A stretch of DNA of 64,000 bases from Paenibacillus piri (GTDB lineage Bacteria > Bacillota > Bacilli > Paenibacillales > NBRC-103111): the NCBI RefSeq assembly GCF_004354045.1, contig NZ_SMRT01000006.1, positions 124,001 through 188,000 on the forward strand. The letters run 5' to 3'. Positions within the stretch are counted from its first letter, which is position 1, and every line of letters begins with the position of its first letter. Under the pieces are notes generated by a model. That model did not search any database. It saw only the letters and a list, made by a program, of their open reading frames with translations, and had not been told where the DNA came from. Below, piece after piece: positions 27,660 through 56,201 of this stretch. The translations under genes and the position numbers were made by a program.

Positions 27660-28229
27660 ATTGGCGATTATACCGTTATTGCCGATGTCGGCGCTTCTCT
27701 GCTGAAGCTGCTGCGCGAGCAGATGACGCCGGATCCCATCCCGCAGCCGGAGTTGATCGGGCTCGCATCGCCTGCCGACAAGGGCGATCTCTACCTTTCC
27801 TTATATTTGTACAGCATTAAAGAAAGCGGAGACAACCGACAGACGCGCATGATAGCCCGGGGAACCGGCGAGATTCAATATCCGCCCGAGACCGTGGACC
27901 TTTATTATTTGCTGACCGCATATTCGGCGGCGGAGCTGCAATCGCGCGTCATGGACGAACACCGGATACTCGGCAGAGCGATCCAGGTGTTGTACGATAA
28001 CTCGATATTGCGCGGATCGTCACTTGTCGGGACGTTGGCTGATCAAGGCGAGGAAGTGCGCATCGTCATGGATGCGCTGTCGGGGGAGGCGCTGACCCGC
28101 ATGTGGAATTTTGGAGACGTTCCTTACCGGCTCTCCGTCGGTTATGTGGCAGGCCCCGTCAATATTGACTCCACGCGGATTAAAACGACGAAGCGGGTAA
28201 CCGAACGCGATTTTCGGATTCAAGGATAG
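27660..28229 (+). CDS. DUF4255/Pvc16-like eCIS protein, apparent ATT start
   Basis: A protein of about 189 residues in the DUF4255 family (Pvc16/Afp16), placed at the sheath/tube terminus in characterised particles. The family opening is visible as GDYTVIADVGASLLKLLRE, then TPDPIPQPELIGLASP. That opening lies upstream of the first ATG (27723). In frame, between TAG (27645) and this conserved start, there is no ATG, GTG or TTG. AGGAGGG (27646-27652) is spaced 7 bases from ATT 27660, which is therefore my start. The TTG at 27661 is out of frame and hits a stop within 15 codons. It is the first gene of the structural operon. Confidence 0.85.
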   Translation: MGDYTVIADVGASLLKLLREQMTPDPIPQPELIGLASPADKGDLYLSLYLYSIKESGDNRQTRMIARGTGEIQYPPETVDLYYLLTAYSAAELQSRVMDEHRILGRAIQVLYDNSILRGSSLVGTLADQGEEVRIVMDALSGEALTRMWNFGDVPYRLSVGYVAGPVNIDSTRIKTTKRVTERDFRIQG

Positions 28230-28240
28230 GAGGATTCGAG

Positions 28241-29035
28241 TTGGAGCATGTCAGAATAGCGAGGCTGAGGACGAAGGTTTCGCTGGTCGTTTGTTTGGTG
28301 GATGCCTTTACCTCGGATCATCCGCATGGCGCGAACATCTCCGTCGTTCTCGAAGGGTCGCTGTCCAAGCCGATCGTCACTTCCAAAGGAACTTATATCT
28401 TTACAAACCTGCAAGCAGGCGCTTACGGGCTGCGCGTGAACGCGCAGCATTATTTCGAAGAGCGCCGTCCTATAGAAGTGGGCCTTGAGAATACGCTGGT
28501 TCATGTTACGCTGTCGCCCCGTCCGTCTTATCCGTTTAAAGAGAAGGATACCTTATTGCGCGTCAGCGTCGGCAATGAAGAAGGCCAGCCGTATGCCAAG
28601 GCTCTTCTGCATGCTTCTGTACAGACGGAGGATGAGGCTAAGGCAAGGCTGGCGCAGGACCGGGCGGAGCCGGGGGCGGACGAGCTGGTCGTCGGCTCGG
28701 TTACCGGAGTCATCAGCCCGGGAGACCGTTATTTGATTCGCGGCCGGGGCGCCGAAGCCGGGGAAGAGCTTTGCAGGATCGCTGAAGTACTGGAACACCG
28801 GCGGAGGCTGAAGCTGGACCGTCCGCTTGCCGGAAGCTACACGCGGGGGGCGCTGCTGCTCCCGGCGATGCAGACGCAGTCGGACGAGCAGGGCGAGGCG
28901 GTAGTCGCTTTTTCCAACTGCAGGGCGAGAAGCTTTAACGTGAAGCTTGACATTGTGCACGGCGGCCGTTCGCTTTCGAAGGAGGTGAATGTCGCGGAGG
29001 GCGGTACGACAGCTGCGGGCAGATTGCAATTCTAG
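28241..29035 (+). CDS. eCIS-locus protein with carboxypeptidase-regulatory-like N-terminal domain
   Basis: A 264-residue protein with no precise family name that I can give. Residues about 15-95 resemble a CarboxypepD_reg/Ig-like beta domain: GANISVVLEGSLSKPIVTSKG, then a YIFTNLQAGAYGLRV strand. The middle (about 140-195) has a cradle-like GDRYLIRGRG segment, and the C-terminus has a second beta region. It starts at TTG 28241 with AGGAGG 7 bases upstream, 11 bases after the DUF4255 gene, so the two are co-translated. Its place between the Pvc16-like and sheath genes suggests a structural or assembly role in the particle. There is no signal peptide. Confidence 0.7.
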   Translation: MEHVRIARLRTKVSLVVCLVDAFTSDHPHGANISVVLEGSLSKPIVTSKGTYIFTNLQAGAYGLRVNAQHYFEERRPIEVGLENTLVHVTLSPRPSYPFKEKDTLLRVSVGNEEGQPYAKALLHASVQTEDEAKARLAQDRAEPGADELVVGSVTGVISPGDRYLIRGRGAEAGEELCRIAEVLEHRRRLKLDRPLAGSYTRGALLLPAMQTQSDEQGEAVVAFSNCRARSFNVKLDIVHGGRSLSKEVNVAEGGTTAAGRLQF

Positions 29036-29236: not shown

Positions 29237-30988
29237 ATGGCTGAGTATTTATCACCGGGAGTCTATGTAGAAGAATTCGACAGCGGCGCGCAACCGCTGG
29301 AAGGTGCAAGTACGAGCACGGCAGGCTTCATCGGTCTTGCACAAAGAGGGGAGATCGAGGGCGTTCCCCTGCTGATTACAAGCGTAGCCGATTTCCATCG
29401 CAATTTCGGCAGCTATTTATCCGAAAATGCGTTCGGGGACTATCGCTTTCTGTCCTATGCGATAGAGCATTTCTTTCTGAACGGGGGCTCGCGCGCATAT
29501 GTGATGCGTGTGGCGCCATCCGATGCCAAACCGGCCTCGAACCAAGGCAGCGCGAACAAGGAAGCGGCTCTTCTGCAGATTGCTTCCAAAAACCCGGGCA
29601 CATGGGGCAACCAGGTGCGGGTCGTGCTTGTTCCGGCCAGCAAAGCCAAGACGCAAATTCTCGACATTGTCGGAACACCGGGCGAATCGGTGCAGTACCG
29701 CGTCAAAAACAATGCGGGCTTCAACGTCGGGGACGTCGTCGCCTTCGAAAACGGCGGCAGCAAGCAGTACAACCGTGTAGTCTCTTCGCTTGACAACATC
29801 ATCGAACTGGAATCCGTGCTGGAAGGCGAAGCGGATGTCATCGACACCAATCTATTGCCTGCAAAAGTGCTCACCACCTGCGAATTCACCATGCACGTAT
29901 TTTACGGGGATGAAGCGGAAACTTTCGAGAGATTATCGCTTAACGTTTCCGCAGCCAACCACGTGGACAAGATCGTAAACCGCTCCAATATTATCAGCGT
30001 CAAAGATTTGAGCCTGGAAACCGATCTGGGCGCCGTGCCTCCGTTCGAGGCGCTTTCCGGCGAGAAGGAAGAAGCCGGCAAATTCCAGATTTCCCTGTTT
30101 AACGGCAGCGACGGCTCCATCGCGAATTTATCCGCCTCCGACTTTATGGGGGTTGACCGCGGTCCCGGCAAAAGAACCGGCATCCAGTCGTTTATCGACA
30201 ACGACGTGGTGAGCCTGATGGCTATCCCGGGCGTGACCGACCCGAATGTGCAGCTGTCGCTGGTGGCGCATTGCGAAAATCTCGGCAGCCGGTTCGCGAT
30301 TCTCGATATTCCGCGCGAGAAAACGAAAGTGGCCGACGTGATGACGCACCGCAACATTTTTGACAGCAACTATGCGGCGATGTACAACCCTTGGCTGCAA
30401 GTGTTCGATCCGCTCGACAAACGCAATATTTATATTCCGCCGTCAGGCTCCATGGCAGGCATTTACTCCCGTTCCGACCAAACCCGCGGCGTGCAAAAGG
30501 CGCCAGCCAACGAAGTCGTCCGCGGCTGCGTAGGCTTGGACTGCCAGTACAACAAGGGCGAGCAGGATATTTTGAACCCGCAGGGCGTTAACCTGATCCG
30601 TCATTTTGCAGGCCAGGGCATTCGCGTATGGGGCGCGCGCACTTGCTCCTCTAACGGTTTGTGGAAATACGTCAACGTTAGACGGCTGTTCATTTTCATC
30701 GAGGAATCGATCAAGAACGGCACCAACTGGGTCGTGTTCGAGCCGAATGACGAGCAGCTGTGGGCCCGCGTACAACGTACCATCGAAGCATTCCTGACCC
30801 GCGTGTGGAGAGACGGCGCGCTGATGGGCAGCAGCCCTGGCGAAGCATTCTACGTGAATATCGGCCGCAGCACCATGACGCAGGACGATATCGATAACGG
30901 CCGGCTGATTTGTATTATCGGCGTTGCGCCTGTAAAACCGGCAGAATTCGTCATCTTCCGGATCACTCAGAAAACTAGAGAGGAATAG
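29237..30988 (+). CDS. Contractile tail sheath protein
   Basis: A 583-residue sheath protein (Afp2-4/Pvc2-4 and phage gp18 family), forming the contractile outer tube. The N-terminus EYLSPGVYVEEFDSGAQPLEG is the family hallmark; the C-terminal domain has GIRVWGARTCSSNGLWKYVNVRR and ends with a strand leading to RITQKTREE. The length is close to that of long Afp sheaths because of an inserted variable domain (about 140-330). Only one sheath gene is present, whereas Afp and PVC have three. The leader contains AAAGGAGAG (29155-29163) not spaced for this gene; the proximal ribosome site is the weak GGGGAAC. Confidence 0.97.
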   Translation: MAEYLSPGVYVEEFDSGAQPLEGASTSTAGFIGLAQRGEIEGVPLLITSVADFHRNFGSYLSENAFGDYRFLSYAIEHFFLNGGSRAYVMRVAPSDAKPASNQGSANKEAALLQIASKNPGTWGNQVRVVLVPASKAKTQILDIVGTPGESVQYRVKNNAGFNVGDVVAFENGGSKQYNRVVSSLDNIIELESVLEGEADVIDTNLLPAKVLTTCEFTMHVFYGDEAETFERLSLNVSAANHVDKIVNRSNIISVKDLSLETDLGAVPPFEALSGEKEEAGKFQISLFNGSDGSIANLSASDFMGVDRGPGKRTGIQSFIDNDVVSLMAIPGVTDPNVQLSLVAHCENLGSRFAILDIPREKTKVADVMTHRNIFDSNYAAMYNPWLQVFDPLDKRNIYIPPSGSMAGIYSRSDQTRGVQKAPANEVVRGCVGLDCQYNKGEQDILNPQGVNLIRHFAGQGIRVWGARTCSSNGLWKYVNVRRLFIFIEESIKNGTNWVVFEPNDEQLWARVQRTIEAFLTRVWRDGALMGSSPGEAFYVNIGRSTMTQDDIDNGRLICIIGVAPVKPAEFVIFRITQKTREE

Positions 30989-31052: not shown

Positions 31053-31487
31053 ATGCCTGGCGAGCGTAAAGATCCATACAGAAATTTTCGATTTAGGGTT
31101 GAGGTAGAAGGAATACAACAAGCGGGCTTCAGCGAGGTGTCCGGATTCGACGCATCGTTGGCCGTGATTGAATACCGTGAAGGCAATGAAACGATTACGC
31201 CCCGCAAGCTGCCGGGGCTGGCGAAATACGGTAACATTACCTTGAAATGGGGCGTTACCGATTCATTGGATATGTACAACTGGATGCAGGAATCGATTCA
31301 AGGAAAAATAGCGCGCAAAACCGTCACGATCATCGCGATCGACGAAGAAGGCGCCGACGTGGCGACGTGGCAGGTTATCGAAGCGTGGCCATCCAAATAC
31401 ACGGCTCCGAATTTTAACGGAACAGGCTCGGAAGTGGCCATCGAATTCCTGGAGCTGGCGCATGAAGGCATGACCCGCACGAAGTAA
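31053..31487 (+). CDS. Inner tube protein 1 (gp19/Afp1-like)
   Basis: A 144-residue tube subunit of the phage T4 gp19 family, which polymerises inside the sheath. The opening DPYRNFRFRVEVEGIQQAGFSEVSG and the later ITLKWGVTDSLDMYNWMQ are typical. The ATG follows AAAGGGG. It is paired with the sheath upstream and followed by a partial terminator, so sheath and tube 1 may be made in excess over downstream baseplate parts. Confidence 0.95.
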   Translation: MPGERKDPYRNFRFRVEVEGIQQAGFSEVSGFDASLAVIEYREGNETITPRKLPGLAKYGNITLKWGVTDSLDMYNWMQESIQGKIARKTVTIIAIDEEGADVATWQVIEAWPSKYTAPNFNGTGSEVAIEFLELAHEGMTRTK

Positions 31488-31701: not shown

Positions 31702-32079
31702 GTGGCTTTTAAAACGGAATACGAATTTGAGCTTCCCAGAGGCTATGTCGACGATAACGGCACATTGCACAAAAGGGGCATTATGCGGCTGGCGACGGCG
31801 GCAGACGAAATTTTACCGATGCGCGATCAGCGGGTACAGCAAAATCCGGGTTATTTGACGATTATACTTTTGACCCGCGTCATTACGACGCTTGGCGAAT
31901 TGAGAGCGATCGACACCCGTGTCATCGAGAAATTGTTTACGGCGGACTTGGCGTTTTTGCAAAATTTTTACCGGGAGATCAACGAAATGGAAGTGCCGAA
32001 GGTTCACACCGCATGTCCGAAGTGCGAGCATGAATTCGAGGTCGATGTATCTTTTATCGCAGGGATGGAGGAGGCATAG
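31702..32079 (+). CDS. Phage-tail-assembly-like protein
   Basis: A 125-residue protein like those annotated as phage tail assembly proteins in actinobacterial and Firmicute injection clusters. The N-terminal half has YEFELPRGYVDDNGTLHKRG and MRLATAADEI; the C-terminus contains CPKCEHEFEVDVSF, which could form half of a zinc site. It is a likely assembly chaperone or minor structural protein rather than part of the mature tube. The start is GTG 31702 with AGGAGGG 8 bases upstream. Its stop overlaps the apparent start of the next small gene. Confidence 0.75.
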   Translation: MAFKTEYEFELPRGYVDDNGTLHKRGIMRLATAADEILPMRDQRVQQNPGYLTIILLTRVITTLGELRAIDTRVIEKLFTADLAFLQNFYREINEMEVPKVHTACPKCEHEFEVDVSFIAGMEEA

Positions 32080-32273
32080 CGGGTTATCCCATTGACAAGA
32101 TTTACGAGGAGGCCGGGTTTATCGCTTATTACTTTCACTGGCCGCATGATGAAATCATGTCGATGGAGCACCGGGAGCGGCGGAAGTGGTGCGAGGAAAT
32201 TTCGCGGATTAACCGCAGCATGAACGAGGACAAGCCCAAAGATAACCCGTTTGACGTATTTAATAAGAGGTGA
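32076..32273 (+). CDS. DUF6760-like small eCIS protein, apparent ATA start
   Basis: A protein of about 65 residues: AGYPIDKIYEEAGFIAYYF, then WPHDEIMSMEHRERRKWCEEI, then SRINRSMNED. The pattern matches the DUF6760 group found between tube-family genes of injection clusters. The conserved GYP-D start lies upstream of any ATG in frame. No ATG, GTG or TTG exists upstream in frame before it; ATA 32076 overlaps the previous stop as gcATAG, with GGAGGAGG just before, which suggests stop-and-restart coupling. ATT 32091 and ATG 32157 are alternatives; ATG 32157 would lose half the domain. Its stop overlaps the GTG at 32270. Confidence 0.65.
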   Translation: MAGYPIDKIYEEAGFIAYYFHWPHDEIMSMEHRERRKWCEEISRINRSMNEDKPKDNPFDVFNKR

Positions 32274-32747: not shown

Positions 32748-35700
32748 ATGAAATCACGGCAAACGTATAACCCCCGGAAACAAGCCCGGAAAGCAAAGGA
32801 TGCTTCTGCCCGACCTGAAGCTCGAAAGAGTAAAGTTCAAGCCGAAGAGGACAATAATTCCACGGTTAAAACAGCCGGACCGGATGCGGGCGGCGGTGCG
32901 CTGCTCAGACGGCGGTTCGCGGACGGGATAATCGGTAAATACGGTTTTGCGCGGAGCGACTATTTAGGGCGCTTGTCGCTCACCTTCCGTGAGCGGGAAG
33001 CGGCTCGGGCGGGAGTCCGGGGCAATCGAGACACCGAATGGCGTTCGATCGTCGCCCGGCTCCAGCAGCAGTTGGATCAGCTGCAGCGCTCGGGTGCGCA
33101 GCATACCGTCACGTATCGGGAGACGGTGCATCGGCTCGAGCGGTGGATTCGCCAATATGGCGGTGAGCCGGAGGAACGGATGCGTCCGCGCTATCGAGCC
33201 GAAGCCGCTTATATGGAAGCCGGCAGTCATGGCACGCTTGCGCAGCGTAAGCAATTGAACGAGACTACGGCGGATAGCGTGCTGCCCGGACAAACGATAA
33301 AACCTGTGCAAGGGCGGCGCATTCTCAGTCAGGATCAAGAACCGGAGCGGGCCTATGAACAGCGGTCGATTCATGGAGAGCTGCAGCCGCAAGGCCCGAT
33401 GCAAGAACCTGCACAGCAGAAGCAGCGGGGGTACGGCGAGGATCGGACATCAGAACAGCCGCAGCCGGAGAAAAGGCGAGGCCGGCCCAGGAAGCAGCCG
33501 CAAAGCGAAGAACCGGTGCAGAGGCAAGCTAGGGGTCCGGAGCAAGGACAGGCCTGGAGTCAGGAACAAGCTCAAATTCGGAATCAACAAGATCAGAACC
33601 TGGATCGGGATCAAGGATCGGTTCCAAGACAAAAGCGAGTGCAGGATCATGAGCGCGATCATCAACAAGGAAGTCCGGCACAAGCTCAAGAGCAAGGGCA
33701 AAAACAGGGACGAGGGCGTAAGCGGGAGTCCGAACAAGCGCGGGGCGCGGAGAACAATCGCCGTCCCATGCAAAGTCAGATGCCGGACAAGGCTCCGGTA
33801 AATGAGCAAGCAAAGGAAATAAAGGTTAAGGACGTAAACGATGAACGGGTTAAAGGAATATTGCGGTGGCCCTTAAATCCGGAAGACGGCCGACCGATGG
33901 TACGGCATCGCAGCGGGCAATTGAGTCCTGGCGGACAAACAACCGCAGAGACAGCGCTCGTCCATGCAGGGATCAAGTCGGCACGCGGGGGTATCGCAGC
34001 GGGCGTTTTACGATGGGAGTCAAGCCGAGTTGACGATAGCGGGCAGGATACATCCGTTCGTTTCGCAACGGGACGAATAAATTGGCGCCCTGTACCTTCT
34101 TCCTTCCCAAACAACAACCGGCTTCCCGCATTGCGTCGGCGCACAGCCGATGGCGATGAAATGTCTCAACTCGCCGGAGAGGCGTTAAATGACTCCGGGC
34201 AGTCAGCAGTCGGACGAAGGCCAACGGCATTGATAAAGCACCAGCATCGTGCGGGAAAGGTTGGGATCAACCAGCAGCCATGGGAGGAAAGCCGCGCTTT
34301 CCGGGGCGGGCCGCTTTCAGGACAACACGGGTTGATCCCGTCGAACCGGCTTGCATATAGCAAACTAGGGATTGCGCGCTTGCCGGACCGGGATGGACGC
34401 GTGGGCAAGCGGTCATTGTCAAATCGCCGTTCCAAAGACGGCGCCTATGGCGGGCAAGCGGCTATTCTTGAACAGAGGCCGATGTTTACGGGCTTGCGGA
34501 AGCCGGCGGTCGTCGGAGCGGATTGGCAAATTCGCCGGCAGCACGGAAATGAACCCGGACAACCGGGGAATAGAGCCCGGAGGCTCGCATACAACGGTAG
34601 CGGCGCCAAGGAAGAGCAGAACAGGTCCGGGATGTTGGATCCGAATGATGGCATCGTACCTAAGCGGCACGAACCGCTCTTATCCGGGACTTATCGCGAC
34701 TTATGGATTGAACGCCGGACAGAAGCCCGGAGACGGACAACCTTCCGCGGCAATCAAGCTTATTTTGGGATGAAGGCTGCCCCCGGGATGCGCGCAGCGC
34801 AAGCGGCAGAAGCTGTGCGACCGAGGATACCGCAAGGCACCGAAGGAAGCGGCTTGATTCAACGGAACGCAGCAGGCGCTGAGCGGCCGACGGATAACGA
34901 TCCGACAAGAGCGCTGTACATGGCCGTTATTGGCGAAAGCAGCGGCTCAAGCGCCGGGTCGCCAACGGCGTATCGCTTAGCAGACGATGCGGCAGTACTG
35001 AGGCTGCCTAAGCGAGGCGGGACGAGTCCGGGAGCGGGTCTCCTCCGCCTGCTGTCGGAGGAAGGCGTGGCTCCCGCAGGGTCCGGTTTGGCGCTGATGC
35101 TGCATCGGACATGGCAGCATGATGCAGCATCGGCAAATCGGCCGCAGAGCATGCTGCGGCCGGATGAAGGCGGCAGCGGCGCAAACGCTGCCGGAGACGG
35201 CATCGTCCGGCGGCGTAAAGCGGCCGGACGGCGGGAAACGCAGCCCCGGTGGGACGAGGGGCTGCACAAGCGGCAAGCGGCTGCACAGCGACCGCAGCCG
35301 CTTGCCCGGGCGGAACAGGCGCTGCTGCGGCGCCTGCCGGCAGGACTGCCGGCCATGGAGCGCTCGCGCTTTGCGGCGGAGCGGATTTCGGCCGGCACGG
35401 CACTGCAGCGGGCCGGGCATCGAGCCGGCCCGGCTGTTCAACGCAGCGCTTCGGCTGCCGGATTTGAGCGGCCCGCTGCGGGTGCAGCCAGCCTTGTGCG
35501 GCGCACAGCCCCATCAGCCGAAGCGGGTCGTTACGGCCTGCATGGCGATGGCGCTTCGTTCAATCCGGCCTCCGCGCTGCGTGATTGGAACAGGCAGTCG
35601 GCCCGGTCGATAAAGACAGCTGCAGATGCAAGCGAGCCATTACGCCGGCAGAGGCCGACGTCCCCGATGGCAGGCAGTAACTTAACCGCATTCGGTTGGG

Positions 35701-38003
35701 CTGGACGGACGTCACCGATTTCCGAGAAGGCCCCGTATCCGATGTCGTTCGGGAATGCGGCGCGAATTGTACAGCGGTTTATCGGACAGCCGGCCCCGCT
35801 GTATACGGGCTCTGTCTTCCGGACAAGCGTCCTTATGGAAGGAAGTCAGGCGCAGCAACGCGACGTATGGTTCGCCGATCGTCCGGGAGCATCTCGTGCG
35901 TCAGCCGGCGTTGAACCGACGGGAAGTATCGCTGCGGCGCAGATAATGATTAATCGGGCGGCATTATCCGATAACCGCCCATCGTTCGCCGGGAGCCGGT
36001 TTGCGGGCTCCACATCGGCCACATGGAGAGATACAGGCGGCCGTCCTGTCAGTCGCTCCGTTGAGCTTAGTGCCAATGGACTTGGAAGCTTGATAAGCCG
36101 ATCAGCGGCTTTGCCTGCAATACGAACGACCAACGGCCCATTGTCCGTATCCGGCCGGCGAGCGTCAGCTGCCTCTGACGCCGGGGGGGATGCAGCGGCA
36201 TTATCGGCTGCGCGGCAATCGGTCGGTCCGGGATCAAAATCGCCGATAACCGGAACCTTCGGGGGCGGCGGTCGGATGGCAAACGTGACATCACGTGCTG
36301 GATATGACATAGGCGGATTGAATGTCCCCACATCGGCTATTATTTTGCCGAAACGGCTTGGTTGGACCCGCGAGCAGTTGGGCTCGAATGGAGCCGCATT
36401 GCGGACGCTCTCACGGGTTGCACGGGCTGCACTACCAGAGGTATCACAGCGAGCCTTGGGGGTAACATTGACCGGGGCTTCGCCGCGAGCGCGGCTGCTG
36501 CGATCGCCGCCGGCGATTGCGCATCGAAACGAGGCGCTGCCAGTGGCGACGCCTACGGCAGCAGCGCATCAGCAGCAGCCGACATCGCCGTCATCGGTAT
36601 TGCGGCGATCCGGCCAATCGGCGGCGCCGGCGGCAATGACAAGGCAAGCGCAGCCGCAGTCATCGCCGTCATCGGTATTGCGACGATCCGACCAATCGGC
36701 GGCGCCGGCGGCAATGACAAGGCAAGTGCAGCCGCAGTCATCGCCGTCATCGGTGTTGCGGCGATCCGGCCAATCGGCGCCGGCGGCAATGACAAGGCAA
36801 GCGCAGCCGCAGTCATCGCCGTCATCGGTGTTGCGGCGATCCGACCAATCGGCAGCGCCGGCGGCAATGGCAAGGCAAGCGCAGCAGCCGACATCGCCAT
36901 TATCGGTGTTGCGACGATCCGAACAATCGGCGGCGCCGGCGGCAATGGCAAGGCAAGCACAGCAGCCGACATCACCGTCATCGGTACTGCGGCGATCCAA
37001 CCAATCGGCGGCGCCATCGGCAATGGCAAGGCAAGCGCAGCAGCCGACATCACCGTCATCGGTGCTGCGGCGATCCGAACAATCGGCAGCACCATCAATT
37101 ACAAGGCAAGCACAGCAGTTGCCAGCATCATCTGCGGCACTGCAGCGGACGCAGCGGTTAGCCTCGACACCGATGGATTCGCCGCTTGCAGGTACCCTCG
37201 TGCAGAAGGGACGGGCACTGTACGGAGGGGGCAACATTGCACTGCGAAGAAACGACGGACTTGCGAAAACTCCGGGACATATCGCCGCAATGCCGGTTTT
37301 GACGGCTTCGGTGACCGGCAGTACCACGCCGCTTTCCCGTAAGCCGATGGTGCTGCAGGCTGCCGGGACGGGTGAAGCAGGTCCAGGCGGCCGGACAGGC
37401 TTGCGCGCGGCATTGCACTGGCAGGCGGAGCAGGCACGCATGGACCGCCTGCGGCAGTCCGCGGCCGGCGCAGCGGCGGCTCCCGCTTTGCCGCTGCAGC
37501 GGAGCGCCACGGGCTCCCCGCTGCGGCTTACGGCGGCGAGCCTGGCTCCTGCCGCCGGATCAACCATCGCGGCCCGCACGGCAGGCCGCGCCGCTCCCGT
37601 AGCGGCGGAACGCGCTGCGAGCCTCCTTGCCGCGGGCAGCGCCTCGCGGCAGCCGGCAGAGGGCCCGTTGGACCCGGGCCCCGGCTTGCTCCAACGGCAG
37701 GCCGCTCAGCCGTCGCCGCTGCTCGAGCACAAACTGCTGCCCGAAGCAGGCAGGGACGGCTACGAAGACGAGACGCTGTCGCCGAGCATGGACGTGCTGA
37801 GGACGCATCGGACGCCCGAGGAACGTCTTGCACAGCCTCAGTCCATGACGGAACAGCCGATCCAGCCAAATGAGCTGAGCAAAGAGCAGATCAAGGAACT
37901 GATCAAGCAAATTCCGCAGCTTGATGTGAACAAAATCGCCGATAAGGTCGCCCGTGAGCTGGAGCGGCGGATGCGGTTCGAACGTCAGCGGCGGGGCATG
38001 TAA
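32748..38003 (+). CDS. Giant low-complexity eCIS protein with 26-residue repeats
   Basis: A 1751-residue protein, largely predicted disordered, rich in Arg, Gln, Ala, Ser and Pro. Residues about 200-330 are Gln/Glu/Arg-rich; about 1274-1457 hold seven tandem units built on SPSSVLRRSGQSAAP then AAMTRQAQPQ. The last about 50 residues are different: EQIKELIKQIPQLDV, then NKIADKVARELERRM, then RFERQRRG. A similar C-terminal amphipathic helix ending in ERERRG-like residues occurs on proteins at this place (between tube 2 and the LysM gene) in other clusters, so I take that helix as the docking part. No toxin domain is recognised. It might be a tape measure, scaffold or lumenal cargo. It starts at ATG 32748 after AGGGGGGG. 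Confidence 0.8.
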   Translation: MKSRQTYNPRKQARKAKDASARPEARKSKVQAEEDNNSTVKTAGPDAGGGALLRRRFADGIIGKYGFARSDYLGRLSLTFREREAARAGVRGNRDTEWRSIVARLQQQLDQLQRSGAQHTVTYRETVHRLERWIRQYGGEPEERMRPRYRAEAAYMEAGSHGTLAQRKQLNETTADSVLPGQTIKPVQGRRILSQDQEPERAYEQRSIHGELQPQGPMQEPAQQKQRGYGEDRTSEQPQPEKRRGRPRKQPQSEEPVQRQARGPEQGQAWSQEQAQIRNQQDQNLDRDQGSVPRQKRVQDHERDHQQGSPAQAQEQGQKQGRGRKRESEQARGAENNRRPMQSQMPDKAPVNEQAKEIKVKDVNDERVKGILRWPLNPEDGRPMVRHRSGQLSPGGQTTAETALVHAGIKSARGGIAAGVLRWESSRVDDSGQDTSVRFATGRINWRPVPSSFPNNNRLPALRRRTADGDEMSQLAGEALNDSGQSAVGRRPTALIKHQHRAGKVGINQQPWEESRAFRGGPLSGQHGLIPSNRLAYSKLGIARLPDRDGRVGKRSLSNRRSKDGAYGGQAAILEQRPMFTGLRKPAVVGADWQIRRQHGNEPGQPGNRARRLAYNGSGAKEEQNRSGMLDPNDGIVPKRHEPLLSGTYRDLWIERRTEARRRTTFRGNQAYFGMKAAPGMRAAQAAEAVRPRIPQGTEGSGLIQRNAAGAERPTDNDPTRALYMAVIGESSGSSAGSPTAYRLADDAAVLRLPKRGGTSPGAGLLRLLSEEGVAPAGSGLALMLHRTWQHDAASANRPQSMLRPDEGGSGANAAGDGIVRRRKAAGRRETQPRWDEGLHKRQAAAQRPQPLARAEQALLRRLPAGLPAMERSRFAAERISAGTALQRAGHRAGPAVQRSASAAGFERPAAGAASLVRRTAPSAEAGRYGLHGDGASFNPASALRDWNRQSARSIKTAADASEPLRRQRPTSPMAGSNLTAFGWAGRTSPISEKAPYPMSFGNAARIVQRFIGQPAPLYTGSVFRTSVLMEGSQAQQRDVWFADRPGASRASAGVEPTGSIAAAQIMINRAALSDNRPSFAGSRFAGSTSATWRDTGGRPVSRSVELSANGLGSLISRSAALPAIRTTNGPLSVSGRRASAASDAGGDAAALSAARQSVGPGSKSPITGTFGGGGRMANVTSRAGYDIGGLNVPTSAIILPKRLGWTREQLGSNGAALRTLSRVARAALPEVSQRALGVTLTGASPRARLLRSPPAIAHRNEALPVATPTAAAHQQQPTSPSSVLRRSGQSAAPAAMTRQAQPQSSPSSVLRRSDQSAAPAAMTRQVQPQSSPSSVLRRSGQSAPAAMTRQAQPQSSPSSVLRRSDQSAAPAAMARQAQQPTSPLSVLRRSEQSAAPAAMARQAQQPTSPSSVLRRSNQSAAPSAMARQAQQPTSPSSVLRRSEQSAAPSITRQAQQLPASSAALQRTQRLASTPMDSPLAGTLVQKGRALYGGGNIALRRNDGLAKTPGHIAAMPVLTASVTGSTTPLSRKPMVLQAAGTGEAGPGGRTGLRAALHWQAEQARMDRLRQSAAGAAAAPALPLQRSATGSPLRLTAASLAPAAGSTIAARTAGRAAPVAAERAASLLAAGSASRQPAEGPLDPGPGLLQRQAAQPSPLLEHKLLPEAGRDGYEDETLSPSMDVLRTHRTPEERLAQPQSMTEQPIQPNELSKEQIKELIKQIPQLDVNKIADKVARELERRMRFERQRRGM
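36571..37118 (+). repeat. Seven-copy 78-bp tandem repeat in the giant protein gene
   Basis: Units of 78 bp (one of 75 bp) encode 26 residues each and diverge mostly by single-base changes. The copies start at SPSSVLRR seven times (one reads SPLSVLRR). The repeat also keeps other frames open and creates long spurious ORFs on both strands. Confidence 0.92.
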
Positions 38004-38230: not shown

Positions 38231-38857
38231 ATGGCACTCAAAAAAGCAATGATCATCGTAGATAAAGGGAGCAGCAAAGAAACGGTCGAAGTGCTGTTTA
38301 ACCCGAACGAATACTCGCTCGATACGAGCAACAGCTATTCCTGGGACAACGTTCCCGGTCTTTCGATGCCGATCGGCCAATTTGTCAGCGGCGGTACGAC
38401 TTCGTTGTCGATGGACATTTTTTTCGATACGTATGAGAAAGGCACGGACGTCCGTGAGTATACCCGGAAAATTTCCGGGCTGCTCGATGTGGATAAAGAT
38501 TTGCACGCCCCGCCGATTTGCCGGTTTGTATGGGGTTCGCTTGATTTCAAAGGCGTTGTGCAGAAGGTCAACCAGCGCTTTACGATGTTTCTCGATTCGG
38601 GGATTCCGGTGCGCGCGACCTTGAAGGTGACGTTTCTCTCTTGGTACAGCAAGACGGAGCAGCTGCAGCAAATTCCCCGTCAATCCGCCGACCGTACGAA
38701 GCAGAAGCTCTTGAAGCAAGGGGAGCAGCTATGGATGATTGCCTCCCATGAATACGAGGACCCGGGGCTGTGGCGGGAAATTGCCGATGCCAACGGGATC
38801 GATAACCCGCTGAAATTGCAGTCAGGACGCAGAATAACCGTGCCAAGGCTGGAGTGA
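38231..38857 (+). CDS. LysM-domain baseplate protein (Afp7/gp53-like)
   Basis: A 208-residue baseplate protein. The N-terminal domain opens VEVLFNPNEYSLDTSNSYSW and contains the SMDIFFDTYEKGTDVREYT segment typical of these proteins. The C-terminal LysM module (about 155-207) has the motifs LWMIASHEYEDPGLWREIADANGI and LQSGRRITVP. In related particles it holds the hub to the first tube ring. ATG 38231, with AAGGAGAGG 8 bases upstream, is the start. The hub gene starts five bases after its end. Confidence 0.92.
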   Translation: MALKKAMIIVDKGSSKETVEVLFNPNEYSLDTSNSYSWDNVPGLSMPIGQFVSGGTTSLSMDIFFDTYEKGTDVREYTRKISGLLDVDKDLHAPPICRFVWGSLDFKGVVQKVNQRFTMFLDSGIPVRATLKVTFLSWYSKTEQLQQIPRQSADRTKQKLLKQGEQLWMIASHEYEDPGLWREIADANGIDNPLKLQSGRRITVPRLE

Positions 38858-38861
38858 TTGT

Positions 38862-39953
38862 ATGGCAGAGCTGAAGCTTGATTCCGCCTCGTTTACGATG
38901 GGCGATTTGGAAACGAAATACAAACTCTTTTTTGCGCCGAGCTTTGAAATTGCGGTTGACGGGAGCAAAATCCCGGATGCCGTCGCCATTTCCGAAATCC
39001 GCGTCGAGAACAGCTTGCAGGGCGTCGCCGATTCGTTCTCGTTTCGGGTGACCAATGCGTTCGATATCGTCAAACGCGATTTTTTATGGGATAACATCTT
39101 TTCTTTGGGCAAAGCCATCGACATTAAGCTCGGATACGTCGACAAGCTGACGCCGGTGTTTCAAGGATACATTACATCTGTGACCGCCGAGTTTACGGAG
39201 GACGGCACCCCCAGCCTGATCGTTCGGGGAATGGACGCTTCTTATTTAATGATGAAAGGCGCCAAGTCCAAGTCGTGGGCAAAAAAAAAGTATAGCGATA
39301 TCGTGACCGAGATCGCTCAGGCGCACGGACTTAAAGTGCAGGTGGACGCAACAACTATGCAATATGAAACCGTGTCGCAAAATCAGATCGACGACTATCA
39401 TTTTATTCAATATTTGGCCGATCTGGTCAATTACGATTTCTTTTTAGTAGGCAAGACGCTGCATTTCCGCAAGCCGCTGACGGAGATGACGCCGGTCGTT
39501 ACGCTGGACTGGGGCACTACGCTGCGAAATCTATCGATCGATATGAACATTGCCGAGCAGATTACGGGAGTGACCGTACGGGGATGGGACAATAAAGAAT
39601 TGAAAGTCATAGAAAGCAAAGCCACTACGGTAACGAAGCTGGGCTCGAATTCGAAGACCGGCAAAGACATTATGAAAGCTCAGGGCGATTATATCGAGCA
39701 TGTGTATACGAATATCGACTCCGTGTCGGAGGCGAAATCGCATGCCGAGGCCCTTTTTAATAAACGTTCGATGAAGCTGATCAGCGGTCAGGGGGAAAGT
39801 GTGGGCATTCCCGAAATCCGCTCCGGCCGCTACTTGAAACTGGACGGTGTCGGCAAACGGCTGAATCAGCCTTACTATATTATAGCGGTAACCCATATTT
39901 TGGACGAAGGCGGTTATGTGACCCGATTCCAGCTGGGAGGCAATGCGGTATGA
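38862..39953 (+). CDS. Baseplate hub protein (gpD/gp27-like; Afp8 N-terminal equivalent)
   Basis: A 363-residue late-control-D-type hub protein, making the ring that converts six-fold tube symmetry to the three-fold spike. Visible features are SFRVTNAFDIVKRDF, GKAIDIKLGY, YHFIQYLADLVNYDFFLVGKTLHF and a final GGYVTRFQLGGNAV. Its stop overlaps the next start as ATGA (39950-39953), so hub and spike are translationally coupled. Afp8 and VgrG carry both parts in one chain; here they are split, as in phages P2 and many Gram-positive clusters. Confidence 0.92.
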   Translation: MAELKLDSASFTMGDLETKYKLFFAPSFEIAVDGSKIPDAVAISEIRVENSLQGVADSFSFRVTNAFDIVKRDFLWDNIFSLGKAIDIKLGYVDKLTPVFQGYITSVTAEFTEDGTPSLIVRGMDASYLMMKGAKSKSWAKKKYSDIVTEIAQAHGLKVQVDATTMQYETVSQNQIDDYHFIQYLADLVNYDFFLVGKTLHFRKPLTEMTPVVTLDWGTTLRNLSIDMNIAEQITGVTVRGWDNKELKVIESKATTVTKLGSNSKTGKDIMKAQGDYIEHVYTNIDSVSEAKSHAEALFNKRSMKLISGQGESVGIPEIRSGRYLKLDGVGKRLNQPYYIIAVTHILDEGGYVTRFQLGGNAV

Positions 39954-40675
39954 TGAATTACCCTGATTATATGCTGCGAGGGATGTCGGAGCCCGTATTT
40001 CCGAAAATCGACGGTGTCATGGTCGCGGTCGTGACGAACAATAAAGATCCCGAAGGGCTTGCCCGGGTCAAGCTGAAGCTGCCTCTGCGCGAGGCGGAAA
40101 CAGAGACCGATTGGGTGCGGATCGCTACCTTAATGGCCGGCAAAGACCGGGGCAGTCTGTTTATCCCGGAGGTCGGGGATGAAGTGCTGGTCGCTTTCCA
40201 TTTGGGCGAAATACGCCAGCCATTCGTGATCGGCACGCTTTGGAGCAAGACGCAGCCGTCGCCCAAAGGCAACGATAAAAACAATCTTCGCAAATTCAAG
40301 TCGCGTGCCGGACATGAGCTGGAATTTGACGATGACGATGCGGACGCGAAGGTTACGATCAAGACAAAGAAGGGCCAGACGATTGTTTTTTCGGACAAGC
40401 AGGATACGATCGATATTCATGAGCAGAGCGGCAACAATGCAATACAGATCAAAGGCGCTTCGGCCAATGAAATTACGATCAAAAGCAGTACGTCGGTCAT
40501 CAAGCTGAACGCCACGGGCGATGTCAGCATCGAAAGCTCCAAGGCTATAACGTTAAAATCGACGCAGGTCCAGATCGAAGCCTCCGCGACGATGGCCTTG
40601 AAGGCGGGCGCCTCGCTCGATATTAAGTCGGACGGAATCATAACGATGAAGGGCAGCATGGTCAAAATTAATTGA
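39950..40675 (+). CDS. Baseplate spike protein (gpV/gp5-like OB-fold and beta-helix)
   Basis: A 241-residue spike. The N-terminal OB-fold (about 15-95) has GVMVAVVTNNKDPEGLARVKLKLP, then WVRIATLMAGKDRGSLFIPEVGDEVLVAFHLGE. The C-terminal half is a repetitive beta region (residues about 115-240) with many K, S and I residues in short strands, fitting a needle. It lies under the hub. No separate PAAR cap gene follows; a DUF4280 PAAR-like gene at 56202 is the nearest candidate. Confidence 0.93.
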   Translation: MMNYPDYMLRGMSEPVFPKIDGVMVAVVTNNKDPEGLARVKLKLPLREAETETDWVRIATLMAGKDRGSLFIPEVGDEVLVAFHLGEIRQPFVIGTLWSKTQPSPKGNDKNNLRKFKSRAGHELEFDDDDADAKVTIKTKKGQTIVFSDKQDTIDIHEQSGNNAIQIKGASANEITIKSSTSVIKLNATGDVSIESSKAITLKSTQVQIEASATMALKAGASLDIKSDGIITMKGSMVKIN

Positions 40676-40706: not shown

Positions 40707-41108
40707 ATGTCGGAAGCTTTTCTCGGAAGGGGCTGGAAATTTCCGATACAAGTCGACAAGGCGACGGGACGTATACGCATGTCGGAATATGAGGAGGATA
40801 TCGCCGAGGCGATCCGAATCATTCTCGGCACCTCCCATGGCGAACGCGCAATGCGCCCGAATTTTGGCTGCGAGGTGAACGAGTTTGTGTTCGGACAGAC
40901 GGACGACACAACGCTTCGATTGTTGGAAAGCAGTATCAAAGAGGCGATCCGGGCCTGGGAGCCCCGGGTGCACGAGGTCGATGTCACCGCTGTCCCCGAC
41001 CGGCAGGAGCATGGCAGAGTCAATATCGGAATCCGTTATTTGGTGCGGACGACGAATAACTTGTTCAATCAGGTATACCCGTTCTATATTCACGAAGGCT
41101 CGAACTAA
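40707..41108 (+). CDS. gp25-like baseplate wedge protein (Afp9)
   Basis: A 133-residue gp25/lysozyme-like wedge protein. The family motifs EDIAEAIRIILGTSHGERAMRPNFGCEVNEFVF and ESSIKEAIRAWEPRVHEVDV (near residues 33-90) are clear. It nucleates sheath polymerisation on the baseplate. ATG 40707 has GGAGGGGG upstream. The gene is followed by an unusual 366-base gap with repeats, then the J proteins. Confidence 0.95.
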   Translation: MSEAFLGRGWKFPIQVDKATGRIRMSEYEEDIAEAIRIILGTSHGERAMRPNFGCEVNEFVFGQTDDTTLRLLESSIKEAIRAWEPRVHEVDVTAVPDRQEHGRVNIGIRYLVRTTNNLFNQVYPFYIHEGSN

Positions 41109-41473: not shown

Positions 41474-44400
41474 ATGCAGCCTCCCAAAATTGATTCAAAC
41501 GGGATTCAGGATCTGATTGCCCGGATGAAGGAAATGGCGCCATATTATACGCCCGAATGGCGCTTCTCGCCGGAGGACCCGGATCCGGGCACGGCGCTGT
41601 TTCTGCTGTTTGCCGAAATGTTCCAGGAGAACGTAAAGCGGCTCAACCGGGTGCCGATGAAAAATTTTATCGCCTTCATGAATTTGCTGGACGTTATTCT
41701 GCTTCCTGCCCGTCCGGCCAGCGCTTTCTTGACGTTCCGGCTGAATGCGGGCATGGCCGATCCGATTATGCTTCCGGCCGGAACGCGGGCGTCGGCCGCA
41801 GCGGCTGACGGCGACGTGCTGTTTGAAACCGAGCGTGCGCTGCTGTTAACGCCGGCGATGCTTACGGCAGCCTATTTATCGAGTCAAAAACACGACATGA
41901 TCGTGCGGATACCGGAATCGTTTACTGCTGCATCCAACGCGGGAACGGCTTCCCCGACCGCTCTGTTCGAACTGCGTGAAGCGGATAATTTGCAGGAGCA
42001 TGCGTTGTTTTTGGAGCACGGGCAGTTGTTTCTGCTGCAGGAGACGGCAAGCATCGAGTTGGAGATCGGCCACTCGCTGCGCAAGCATGATGAAACTTCG
42101 CTTGGCCGCCAACTGGCCGATTCGCGACAGGTGGAATGGCTGTATGCTGCGGCTGACGGATGGAAGCTGTTTGACCGCGTGGAGTTGAAGGGGGATCGGC
42201 TGCTGCTGCTGAAATCGCAGGCGGGCGAGCTGGTGGAAAGCGAAGTCGACGGCCATGCGGGCCGCTGGATCCAATGCCGGATGAAGCGGGGCGCGCAGCA
42301 CAGCGGCCTTCCGACATTGGCCGACCAGCAGCTGGAGCTGGATCGTATCGCGGTAAAAACCGATTACGCGGACAGCTTGGATCATGGCGGCATTTCACCC
42401 GATGTGATGTTTTATAACGATGTGCAGGCGGACCCGGACGGCTTTTATCCGTTCGGCGATTTGTTCGCGCCATACGGAACATTTTATATAGCCAGCCGTG
42501 AGGCGTTAAGCAAGCTGGACGGGTTCATCACCCTATCCTTCGGGCTGAAGGCCATTCCGAACCGGTTCCAACCGGAGACCGTACAGCCGGTGGACTGGAA
42601 ATTGATTATGAAAAAGTCCAAGTTCGACAAGCGTGACGTACCGCTTGTTTCCGTTGCCGAGGTGCTGTGGGAATATTGGAACGGCAGTACATGGGCCCGG
42701 CTCAATACCGGTAAAGAAGCGGAGCGGCTGTTTTATCATCCGGGAGAAGAGCTCAAGCGAATGGAGGTTACCTTCCGCTGTCCGCAAAATTTGCAGGAGG
42801 TATACGTCAATTCGCAATTGAGCTACTGGATTCGGGTTCGCATTCTGCATATCGAAAATATGTATGCGGCAGAGCCGGTCTATTTATCCCCATGGATGGA
42901 GGATGTGAAGCTGACCTATCGGTATGTCGATCGGAACTATTCGCTTCGGCGCTGTCTGACCTTAAACAACACCGCATTTGTCGACAGAACCGCACAAAGC
43001 CGCGGACATGGCGAAGCCTTTGCGCCTTTTACCCATTTGGAGAGCGATTGTCCGAGCCTGTATGTAAGCTTTAACGCTCCGCCCGTCAAAGGGCCGATCT
43101 CCATGTACGTGTCCGTGCAGCAGCAACGGCTGACCGAAGACGATATTCCGTTATTGGAATGGCAGTATTTGAGAACGGGTTACGGCCACGGAGGCAGTTC
43201 TGCTGAATGGTCGCCTCTCAAAGTTATTGACGATACGAACGGGCTAACGCGCAGCGGGACGGTTCAGTTTGCCGGCCCGGCTGATTTTGCTCATGCGCGG
43301 CGATTCGGGACGGAAGGCTATTGGGTGCGCATCGTGAACCGAGACGGCAAGTATGACGACCGCACCGGCGCCTATGCGCTGCCTGTTGTGAACGGTATGT
43401 ATATCAATACGGTTGCTGCGCTTCAGCAGGAAACGGTTGTCGGTGAATATCCGGACCCGCGGCCCGGGGATATCGTTTCCGAGTTTCAGTTGAGTCGTAT
43501 GCCGGTCGTATCGGAAACGGTTTGGGTGGATGAAACGGGTGTGATGACGGAGGAGGAAGTGCTGCGGCATGCGGAACAAGGAACGCTGGATATGGATGTC
43601 GTCCGCGACTCAGAAGGCCACATTCAGCGACTGTGGGTGAAATGGCTCCCTGTCGGACATTTGGCCGATTCCGGAGATAAAGATAGACATTACACAATAG
43701 ACCGTGTGTATGGGCGCATCGGCTTCGGCGACGGCATTCATGGTATGGTTCCGCCCAAAGGCGGTCTGGAACAGATTAAAGTCCATTATAAAGTGACACG
43801 CGGCCGAGCGGGCAACGTAGAGGCCGGACATATCGTTCAATTGCAAAATACGATCGCTTTTGTGGAAGGAGTGGCCAATCCGGAGGCAGCGGCCGGCGGA
43901 TGCGATGCTGAGCACCAAGAATCGGCCCTGCGCCGCGGTCCGTGGCAGCTGAAGCATCGGGGGCGCGCCGTTACCGCCGAGGATTTCGAGTGGCTGGCGC
44001 GTGAGGCGTATCCGAACATTGCACGTGTGAAGTGCCTCGCCAATTACAATGCTCTTGTTAAACCGGATATCGGCTGTATTACACTCGTCATTTTGCCGCA
44101 GGAGGGCGTCGGCGGCTTGGCCGCTTTCTCCGAGCTGAAAAAGCAGGTGGAGAAATACATCCTGCAGCGCGCATCCAATCTGGTCGCTTTGCCGGAACGC
44201 ATTCAAGTCATTCAGCCGGCCTTCCTCGAAGTGTCCGTCATCGCGAATGTCGCCGTACAGGGGCTGGAGGCTGTTGTTCCTACGGAATTGGAGGCAATTG
44301 AGAAGCTGCAGAGGTTTCTTGATCCGCTAAACGGCAATTACGACGGAACCGGCTGGCAAATTGGCCAGGAGATTCATATGTCGATGTTTTACTCGCTGCT

Positions 44401-44560
44401 GAAATCGATTCGTTCCATCAACCATGTCGAGAAGCTGTATATGACCGTTGAGAAAGTTGAGGATGGCGTCCGTACCGAGCTTGACGTGAATCGCCTCGAG
44501 CCGCTGCTGCATGGCATCGTCATCAGCGGCAGCCATAAGGTGATCGTCAATGCGATATAG
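41474..44560 (+). CDS. Baseplate J-like protein 1 (Afp11/gp6-like)
   Basis: A 1028-residue baseplate wedge protein. The C-terminal third has the family block RGRAVTAEDFEWLAREAYP, then NIARVKCL, and QIGQEIHMSMFYSLLKSI near residue 975. The N-terminus has YYTPEWRFSPEDPDPGTALFLLFAEM, the usual start of large J proteins in injection clusters. Together with the next gene it frames the baseplate that locks and triggers the sheath. It starts at ATG 41474 with GGGGGTGG upstream. The MITE-like element lies between it and gp25. Confidence 0.93.
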   Translation: MQPPKIDSNGIQDLIARMKEMAPYYTPEWRFSPEDPDPGTALFLLFAEMFQENVKRLNRVPMKNFIAFMNLLDVILLPARPASAFLTFRLNAGMADPIMLPAGTRASAAAADGDVLFETERALLLTPAMLTAAYLSSQKHDMIVRIPESFTAASNAGTASPTALFELREADNLQEHALFLEHGQLFLLQETASIELEIGHSLRKHDETSLGRQLADSRQVEWLYAAADGWKLFDRVELKGDRLLLLKSQAGELVESEVDGHAGRWIQCRMKRGAQHSGLPTLADQQLELDRIAVKTDYADSLDHGGISPDVMFYNDVQADPDGFYPFGDLFAPYGTFYIASREALSKLDGFITLSFGLKAIPNRFQPETVQPVDWKLIMKKSKFDKRDVPLVSVAEVLWEYWNGSTWARLNTGKEAERLFYHPGEELKRMEVTFRCPQNLQEVYVNSQLSYWIRVRILHIENMYAAEPVYLSPWMEDVKLTYRYVDRNYSLRRCLTLNNTAFVDRTAQSRGHGEAFAPFTHLESDCPSLYVSFNAPPVKGPISMYVSVQQQRLTEDDIPLLEWQYLRTGYGHGGSSAEWSPLKVIDDTNGLTRSGTVQFAGPADFAHARRFGTEGYWVRIVNRDGKYDDRTGAYALPVVNGMYINTVAALQQETVVGEYPDPRPGDIVSEFQLSRMPVVSETVWVDETGVMTEEEVLRHAEQGTLDMDVVRDSEGHIQRLWVKWLPVGHLADSGDKDRHYTIDRVYGRIGFGDGIHGMVPPKGGLEQIKVHYKVTRGRAGNVEAGHIVQLQNTIAFVEGVANPEAAAGGCDAEHQESALRRGPWQLKHRGRAVTAEDFEWLAREAYPNIARVKCLANYNALVKPDIGCITLVILPQEGVGGLAAFSELKKQVEKYILQRASNLVALPERIQVIQPAFLEVSVIANVAVQGLEAVVPTELEAIEKLQRFLDPLNGNYDGTGWQIGQEIHMSMFYSLLKSIRSINHVEKLYMTVEKVEDGVRTELDVNRLEPLLHGIVISGSHKVIVNAI

Positions 44561-46931: not shown

Positions 46932-46982
46932 TGTGATGAACCATAGAGCCGGGAGGCCGGCAGGGATAAGGGGGTGATCACC

Positions 46983-49091: not shown

Positions 49092-49141
49092 TCGCGACGT
49101 TGGAGAATATGAATCAAAGTAAAGGAAGGCGAGGGATTTCG

Positions 49142-56114: not shown

Positions 56115-56201
56115 TAACGATTCACTCCCGCTACCGAAATCGCCTGCCTGAGGCAGGACAGGGGACACTTCATGGAACAAACAGAAAGCCGCAGCAGCAG
56201 C

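What the first reader, a model, noticed from the sequence alone, without database searches (positions are those of the whole stretch)
32748..38003. A 1751-residue disordered protein at a conserved slot, with a 78-bp tandem repeat that can vary in number
Between tube 2 and the LysM gene lies a giant Arg/Gln/Ala-rich chain ending in a helix seen in other clusters. It has seven near-identical 26-residue units (36571-37118), each with a VLRRS core. It may be a tape measure whose repeats change particle length, or an Arg-rich lumenal cargo with positive charge for nucleic acid or toxin packaging. No other tape-measure gene was found in the cluster.
Basis: partly seen in the sequence, partly recalled or inferred. 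Interest (0 to 1): 0.8.

Follow-up and report, generated by a model that had tools for sequence, protein, structure and literature searches.

The report
Missing tape-measure candidate of injection machines
A giant, fast-changing protein sits where the tail-length "tape measure" sits in a related phage, inside a bacterial syringe cluster in which no other tape measure was recognised; similar proteins occur in the same spot in other bacteria and may be the ruler or the filling of these machines.

Summary
ORF 32748-38003 (1751 aa) lies between tube 2 and the LysM tube initiator of a contractile injection system (CIS) and has seven ~26-residue VLRRS units. Of 57 loci fetched from the family scan, 49 carry one intact giant ORF (1237-2481 aa) in this slot; five are cut by contig ends. 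All 49 share the C-terminal segment and 48 an N-terminal motif. In 8 pairs of relatives the slot's dN was roughly 8 or more times the sheath's. The 78-bp array is lineage-specific.

Slot proteins ending alike occur in Nostoc and Rhizobium, and with a more diverged end in Streptomyces-type clusters (937-1295 aa, 54 loci), a group whose ~270-300-nm particle is reported to lack a tape-measure gene. In one complete Streptomyces phage with homologous tail genes the slot holds a tail protein with tape-measure and lysin matches. Pfam CIS_TMP matched 0 of 103 family genomes (weak positive control).

The chain carries a directional motif, [VIL]QR, strongly enriched also in eCIS-core (DUF4157) proteins of the same order.

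Best reading: a spike-anchored lumenal chain in the tape-measure role. Length control is not shown; indels do not compensate, and published S. coelicolor mass spectrometry does not name the protein.

The parts
32748..38003 (+). giant slot protein, 1751 aa, candidate tape measure / lumenal chain
32916..33008 (+). conserved N-terminal motif FADGIIGKYGF...YLGRLSLTFRE (residues 57-87)
   Evidence: motif in 48 of 49 family loci, 35 of 40 Bacillales representatives (38 with a looser pattern), and Nostoc
36571..37118 (+). tandem array, seven units with VLRRS core (78 bp)
37914..38000 (+). conserved C-terminal segment PQLDVNKIADKVARELERRMRFERQRRGM (residues 1723-1751); helix judged by eye, not predicted
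16317..18566 (+). AAA ATPase, probably the cluster's Cis15-like ATPase
27723..28229 (+). Pvc16_N tail terminator / cap
   Evidence: PF14065 E 5.8e-31
28241..29035 (+). carboxypeptidase-regulatory-like protein of the cluster
   Evidence: PF13620 E 2.2e-5, below cut-off; gene in the same place in many relatives
29237..30988 (+). sheath
31053..31487 (+). tube 1
31702..32079 (+). tail-assembly-chaperone-like protein
   Evidence: phrog_508 E 2.7e-6
32157..32273 (+). end of a small ORF resembling DUF6760 (by eye; true start probably upstream)
   Evidence: compare L068
32270..32728 (+). tube 2
38231..38857 (+). CIS_tube + LysM, tube initiator (Cis7/Afp7-like)
38862..39953 (+). hub (Phage_GPD)
39950..40675 (+). 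spike (Phage_base_V)
40707..41108 (+). gp25-like wedge
41474..44560 (+). baseplate J
44691..46931 (+). baseplate J (second)
46974..49091 (+). Tail_P2_I
49100..50794 (+). CIS13-like
   Evidence: NF053767 E 3.2e-32, 112 bits, below the cut-off of 370

Best explanation
The protein is a structural, lumen-resident chain of the CIS, encoded in the gene position that holds the tape-measure protein in a related phage. Its conserved C-terminal segment docks at the hub/spike (the site of the Alg6/Cis6 plug and of phage tape-measure C-termini); the conserved N-terminal segment marks the other end; the long, positively charged, low-complexity middle runs up the tube during assembly. The total chain sets or limits tube length, so expansion of repeats such as the 78-bp array would lengthen the particle. 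Shown: position, wide conservation of the slot gene, conserved ends, fast drift of the middle, no recognised other tape measure, motif. Inferred: lumen location, docking, length control.
For: Position: sheath-tube-TAC-DUF6760-tube2-SLOT-LysM-hub-spike-gp25-BPJ in the window and the Bacillales loci. In Streptomyces phage LuckySocke the order is sheath-tube-g90-g91-g92-g93-g94-g95-g96-gp25-BPJ; g90 matches the window's chaperone-like protein (E 3e-5), g94 the Streptomyces LysM protein (2.2e-10) and g96 the window's spike (4.4e-8; BLAST against 12 chosen proteins), g93 is CIS_tube (1.6e-9); g92 (1054 aa, 'hypothetical' in the record) matches phrog_329 minor tail protein (6.5e-212), tape-measure PHROGs 991 (3e-13, over residues 824-987) and 1533 (2e-4, over 364-561) and NlpC/P60 (4.8e-23). 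CIS_TMP: 0 of 103 family genomes. Slot gene: one intact ORF in 49 of 57 family loci and in 14 of 15 further Bacillales loci fetched (the 15th, L094, starts downstream of it). Streptomyces-type clusters: 54 of 60 loci with both flanks have a 937-1295-aa slot protein whose C-terminus is a moderate profile match to that of Bacillales and others (hhalign probability 60%, pairwise E 8.9e-5). Papers say that the tape-measure gene is absent there (PMC10066040, PMC12237407, PMC10286715; passages) although S. coelicolor particles were all one length, 268 nm; by locus numbers three genes between its tube (SCO4252) and tube 2 (SCO4248) were not modelled. Streptomyces-type slot lengths level off with divergence (rms difference 96-100 aa beyond sheath distance 0.06). 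Anchor precedents: Alg6 trimer with C-terminal helix in the spike cavity; diffocin tape-measure trimer whose C-terminal helices bind the spike.
Against: Close pairs show no compensation of insertions and deletions (mean net^2 / sum of squares 1.36 in 10 Bacillales pairs, 1.17 in 18 of 22 Streptomyces-type pairs, those above 60% identity; 1 = random walk), and in Bacillales length differences grow with distance (rms 104 to about 450 aa). The middle is not coiled-coil-like (P+G 16.9%, longest P/G-free run 26), unlike the diffocin tape measure. No tblastn match in phage records, no PDB match of the C-terminal profile (best E 0.15), no tape-measure family. Phage g92 shares neither the [VIL]QR motif (0 found) nor, by eye, the C-terminal segment. 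Mass spectrometry of purified S. coelicolor particles names sco4242, sco4256 and sco4251 among unknown-function proteins, not sco4249 (PMC10020575, passage). The S. coelicolor lumen looked mostly empty when Sco4256-4258 were deleted (PMC10066040, passages). The CIS_TMP negative has a weak control: of 17 plasmid records only Cereibacter gave a match, below cut-off. L064 has a slot protein of only 279 aa; its cluster was not searched for another tape measure.
Confidence: 0.5

Rival explanations
1. It is a cargo/effector: a lumenal protein ejected on contraction, like Tme of S. davawensis or Sle1 of S. lividans, which are related to tape measures but act in the target.
For: Tme is encoded upstream of the baseplate genes, is the largest ORF of its cluster and ~70% predicted disordered (PMC11126660, abstract, passages and sections 6, 9, 12). 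The [VIL]QR motif is shared with eCIS-core proteins (65 observed, 2.5 expected in 12 representatives; mirror 1). Fast evolution (dN/dS 0.33-0.58 against 0.00-0.08 for sheath, tube and LysM). Geller et al. list an antibacterial EAT8 of Paenibacillus jilunlii, 'Nucleoporin?' (PMC8213781, passages); whether it is a slot protein could not be checked.
Against: No enzyme, toxin or DUF4157 domain recognised, no transmembrane-like stretch in the window protein (highest 19-residue hydropathy 1.05), a slot ORF in 49 of 57 family loci with the rest mostly cut or broken, both ends conserved.
Confidence: 0.25
2. It is the spike plug (Cis6/Alg6) with a long passive or cargo-tethering tail: only the C-terminal segment is needed for assembly; the [VIL]QR motifs dock eCIS-core cargo to the tube or the loading machinery.
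For: The gene place corresponds to that of afp6/alg6 by their numbering. Clusters with a short 59-71-aa protein in this place exist (L067, L077, L179). Random-walk length drift fits a passive tail. Motif shared with eCIS-core proteins.
Against: No match of the C-terminal profile to any PDB chain; a passive tail need not keep an N-terminal motif; Streptomyces-type lengths level off.
Confidence: 0.17
3. It is a polyprotein or substrate cut at the repeated [VIL]QR sites, for example by the eCIS-core protein with an HExxH motif encoded 6 kb beyond the window end.
For: Directional repeated motif; eCIS-core hit at G000:C56:194082-194312, about window 70082; HExxH in it (L185).
Against: The motif is not enriched in the ~500-aa slot proteins L090-L093, L095; no evidence of proteolysis.
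Confidence: 0.05
4. It is an Arg-rich carrier that packages nucleic acid or toxin.
For: Net +110; positive in nearly all relatives.
Against: No nucleic-acid-binding domain recognised; one family member is net negative (L027, -23); the charge would fit a negative lumen equally well.
Confidence: 0.03

Closest known systems
Phage/tailocin tape-measure proteins (diffocin CD1366; LuckySocke gene 92)
   Same: Gene slot before the CIS_tube/LysM genes (LuckySocke); large ORF; a C-terminal segment that could sit on the spike
   Different: No coiled coil, no lysin domain, no sequence match; low-complexity chain with [VIL]QR motifs
Tme (BN159_7576, S. davawensis)
   Same: Largest ORF, upstream of baseplate genes, mostly disordered
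   Different: Window protein lacks DUF4157, endonuclease and transmembrane parts; ends in the conserved segment instead
Spike plug Alg6 / Cis6 / Afp6
   Same: Gene place by numbering; helix-like C-terminus
   Different: 1751 aa against a short protein; no sequence match found
CIS_TMP (Pfam PF19268)
   Same: Proposed role
   Different: No match in the window protein or in 103 family genomes
Sle1 (S. lividans)
   Same: Tape-measure-related CIS cargo
   Different: Encoded upstream of the sheath; coiled coil plus predicted membrane hairpin (PMC13277306, abstract and passages)

Membership tests
CIS / eCIS cluster | sheath, tubes, LysM tube initiator, hub, spike, gp25, baseplate J, AAA ATPase and Pvc16 terminator together | tested here: met
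   the ATPase lies 9 kb upstream of Pvc16
Tape-measure protein | gene between tube/chaperone and LysM/hub genes, as in a related phage | tested here: met
   (one phage examined)
Tape-measure protein | sequence match to a tape-measure family | tested here: not met
Tape-measure protein | long helical / coiled-coil chain | tested here: not met
   composition only; structure prediction never ran
Tape-measure protein | length under selection / sets particle length | tested here: inconclusive
   no particle data
Tme-type effector | N-terminal DUF4157 and a C-terminal enzyme | tested here: not met
Spike plug (Cis6) | gene between tube-initiator and LysM genes | tested here: met
   place of Alg6/Cis6 from its numbering
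Spike plug (Cis6) | C-terminal helix homologous to Alg6/Cis6 | tested here: inconclusive
   no PDB hit; so short a helix may not score
Lumenal protein | present inside particles | not testable with these tools
   needs mass spectrometry / cryo-EM

The most novel reading that the evidence does not exclude
A whole class of CIS (Bacillales, cyanobacterial and the Streptomyces type whose ruler is reported missing) uses a non-helical ruler: a low-complexity chain pinned at the spike and studded with a directional [VIL]QR short motif that is also the docking tag of eCIS-core cargo, so that ruler and cargo occupy the tube through the same motif, and repeat expansion retunes particle length and load.
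Probability: 0.2. Interest if true: 0.85.

Novelty: new variant of a known kind. Interest (0 to 1): 0.62.

Why it matters
Published work on the Streptomyces CIS says that the tape-measure gene is absent, although S. coelicolor particles were all of one length. This analysis points to one overlooked gene in the right place (by order SCO4249 in S. coelicolor, an inference) and to relatives in other phyla, which makes the question testable in a laboratory strain. The motif shared with eCIS-core proteins also suggests how cargo may be held in the tube.

Tried and rejected
Chance or out-of-frame ORF: rejected (single ORF in 49 of 57 loci, dN/dS of relatives). GC by codon position was not decisive for the window ORF (0.68/0.58/0.62). 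The 26-residue unit as a 39-A ring period: rejected, since motif spacing elsewhere in the chain is irregular and other lineages have other periods. C-terminal profile against solved plugs: none. Whole protein against the PDB: one low-complexity match, E 0.34, taken as chance. Helical moment of the C-terminal segment: only 23 of 46 representatives exceed z 1.5, so amphipathicity is not claimed. Charge-hydropathy puts the window protein on the disordered side but only 16 of 39 other Bacillales representatives and 1 of 56 Streptomyces-type proteins, so 'disordered' rests on composition. Proteins before the ATPase in three short-slot clusters as Afp14: only the Cereibacter one matched CIS_TMP (E 4.5e-5, below cut-off); those of L176 and L177 did not. 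The Nostoc DUF4157 protein is hardly enriched in [VIL]QR (3 against 1.3; mirror 4 against 1.1). Among the 46 slot representatives [VIL]QR exceeds expectation in 37 and z 2 in 24; L054 is depleted (1 against 6.7) and rich in the mirror (24).

Counts and drops: of 57 family loci, 49 have one intact giant ORF; L017, L020, L031, L051, L052 are cut by contig ends, L055 has broken frames (left as they are), L064 is a second cluster of one genome with 279 aa, L065 is not an orthologous cluster. From the order scan I fetched 15 regions, not all strong hits. Of 80 Streptomyces-type loci (two are Kitasatospora and Actinacidiphila) 60 had both flanks; 54 gave a slot ORF with the C-terminal signature and over 800 aa, 6 did not. 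The start of the L093 slot ORF (587 aa) is probably too early. In one search one of 30 picked ORFs (L196) was plainly a wrong ORF and was not removed before counting. In one search the group labelled Streptomyces (57) wrongly included the window protein; one search gives the corrected 56.

Full report
Observation. The window carries a CIS cluster: an AAA ATPase at 16317-18566, then Pvc16 terminator, sheath, tube 1, a tail-assembly-chaperone-like protein, a DUF6760-like small ORF, tube 2, the giant ORF, CIS_tube/LysM, hub, spike, gp25, two baseplate J proteins, Tail_P2_I and a CIS13-like protein. The giant ORF is as described.

Comparative anatomy. LysM homologues were found in 57 of 104 genomes of the family scan. 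I fetched 57 loci besides the window. In 49 the slot between tube 2 and LysM is filled by one intact ORF of 1237-2481 aa. All 49 have the C-terminal signature and 48 the N-terminal motif FAxxIxxKYGF. An order-wide scan led to 15 more regions; 14 include the slot, with ORFs of 499-1663 aa; 8 of these 14 have the same strict ending and the other six end in ERRGL or RRGLR variants. Plasmid-borne clusters of Nostoc (524 aa), Rhizobium (an ORF of up to 335 aa) and Paenibacillus cellulosilyticus (two overlapping ORFs of 352 and 532 aa, the frame apparently broken) end alike. In Streptomyces-type clusters the gene lies between DUF6760 and tube 2 instead of after tube 2; 54 of 60 loci with both flanks gave 937-1295 aa, median 1045.5. 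Their C-terminus is a moderate profile match to the others (hhalign probability 60%).

Evolution. In 8 close pairs of relatives the slot gene has dN/dS 0.33-0.58 against 0.00-0.08 for sheath, tube and LysM; its dN is about 8 to 50 times that of the sheath. Insertions and deletions do not compensate. Lengths diverge in Bacillales but level off in the Streptomyces type. Tandem arrays occur in 36 of 51 family slot genes, with differing units and, between close relatives, differing copy numbers. The window's array is one of many lineage-specific expansions.

Motif. Across 46 representatives that share under 5% of 5-mers in the middle, [VIL]QR occurs 216 times against 66.5 expected from local shuffles; its mirror RQ[VIL] 93 against 66.8. 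In the window protein outside the array it is 9 against 1.5, mirror 0. The ~500-aa proteins of one genus lack the enrichment. In eCIS-core proteins of the same order it is 65 against 2.5 in 12 representatives, mirror 1. Of the 34 of 149 order genomes with an eCIS-core match, 33 also have a strong CIS LysM match; the window's genome has one 6 kb beyond the window end. I take this as a shared interaction motif; a cleavage site is the alternative.

Tape-measure question. Pfam CIS_TMP is absent from 103 family genomes, with a weak positive control. A complete Streptomyces phage has homologous tube, chaperone-like, CIS_tube, LysM and spike genes in the same order, and its gene in this slot matches tail, tape-measure and lysin families. 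Papers of two groups state that the Streptomyces CIS lacks a tape measure, while S. coelicolor particles are all 268 nm with 60 tube layers. By locus numbers the modelled proteins leave three genes between tube and tube 2, matching chaperone-like, DUF6760 and slot; that SCO4249 is the slot gene is my inference. Against this, published mass spectrometry does not name it.

Anchor. Alg6/Cis6, in the same place by its number, is a trimeric plug in the spike cavity with a C-terminal helix, and the diffocin tape measure ends in three helices on the spike. The slot protein's C-terminus could be the same anchor; no sequence or structural proof was obtained (structure prediction never ran).

Verdict. 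Best explanation: a spike-anchored lumenal chain in the tape-measure role (0.5); cargo/effector 0.25; plug with passive tail 0.17. Papers were seen as abstracts, passages or named sections only. Searches for SCO4249, SCO4250 or SCO4251 and for tape measure with plug and baseplate returned no report of this reading among the listings and passages that I saw; the one paper listed with SCO4249 (PMC13033682, on Lon protease) was not opened.

Noticed in passing
about window 70082-70312 (G000:C56:194082-194312), beyond the window end: eCIS-core (DUF4157) protein near the cluster; 34 of 149 order genomes have a match, 33 of them with a CIS LysM match
   Followed up: partly
L213 (Streptomyces phage LuckySocke) 11985-23608: A complete myophage whose tail module is homologous to and co-linear with the CIS cluster, with CIS_tube and LysM as two genes; may be near the CIS ancestor
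   Followed up: partly
L058, L060: AT-rich relatives show longer recurring blocks (LxLIDRKLIDRGL, NLTEKIVRERIGE, SSLSPLIYQKF) in the slot protein, seen by eye
   Followed up: no
L064 (second cluster of G103): A slot protein of only 279 aa that keeps both conserved ends; a natural test of particle length
   Followed up: no
window 54297-56180 -: Membrane protein with MORN-like repeats, seen by eye in the translation
   Followed up: no
window 59152-59372: Second tandem array (27/36 bp) coding Ala/Gly/Ser-rich repeats in the ORF 56843-60262
   Followed up: no
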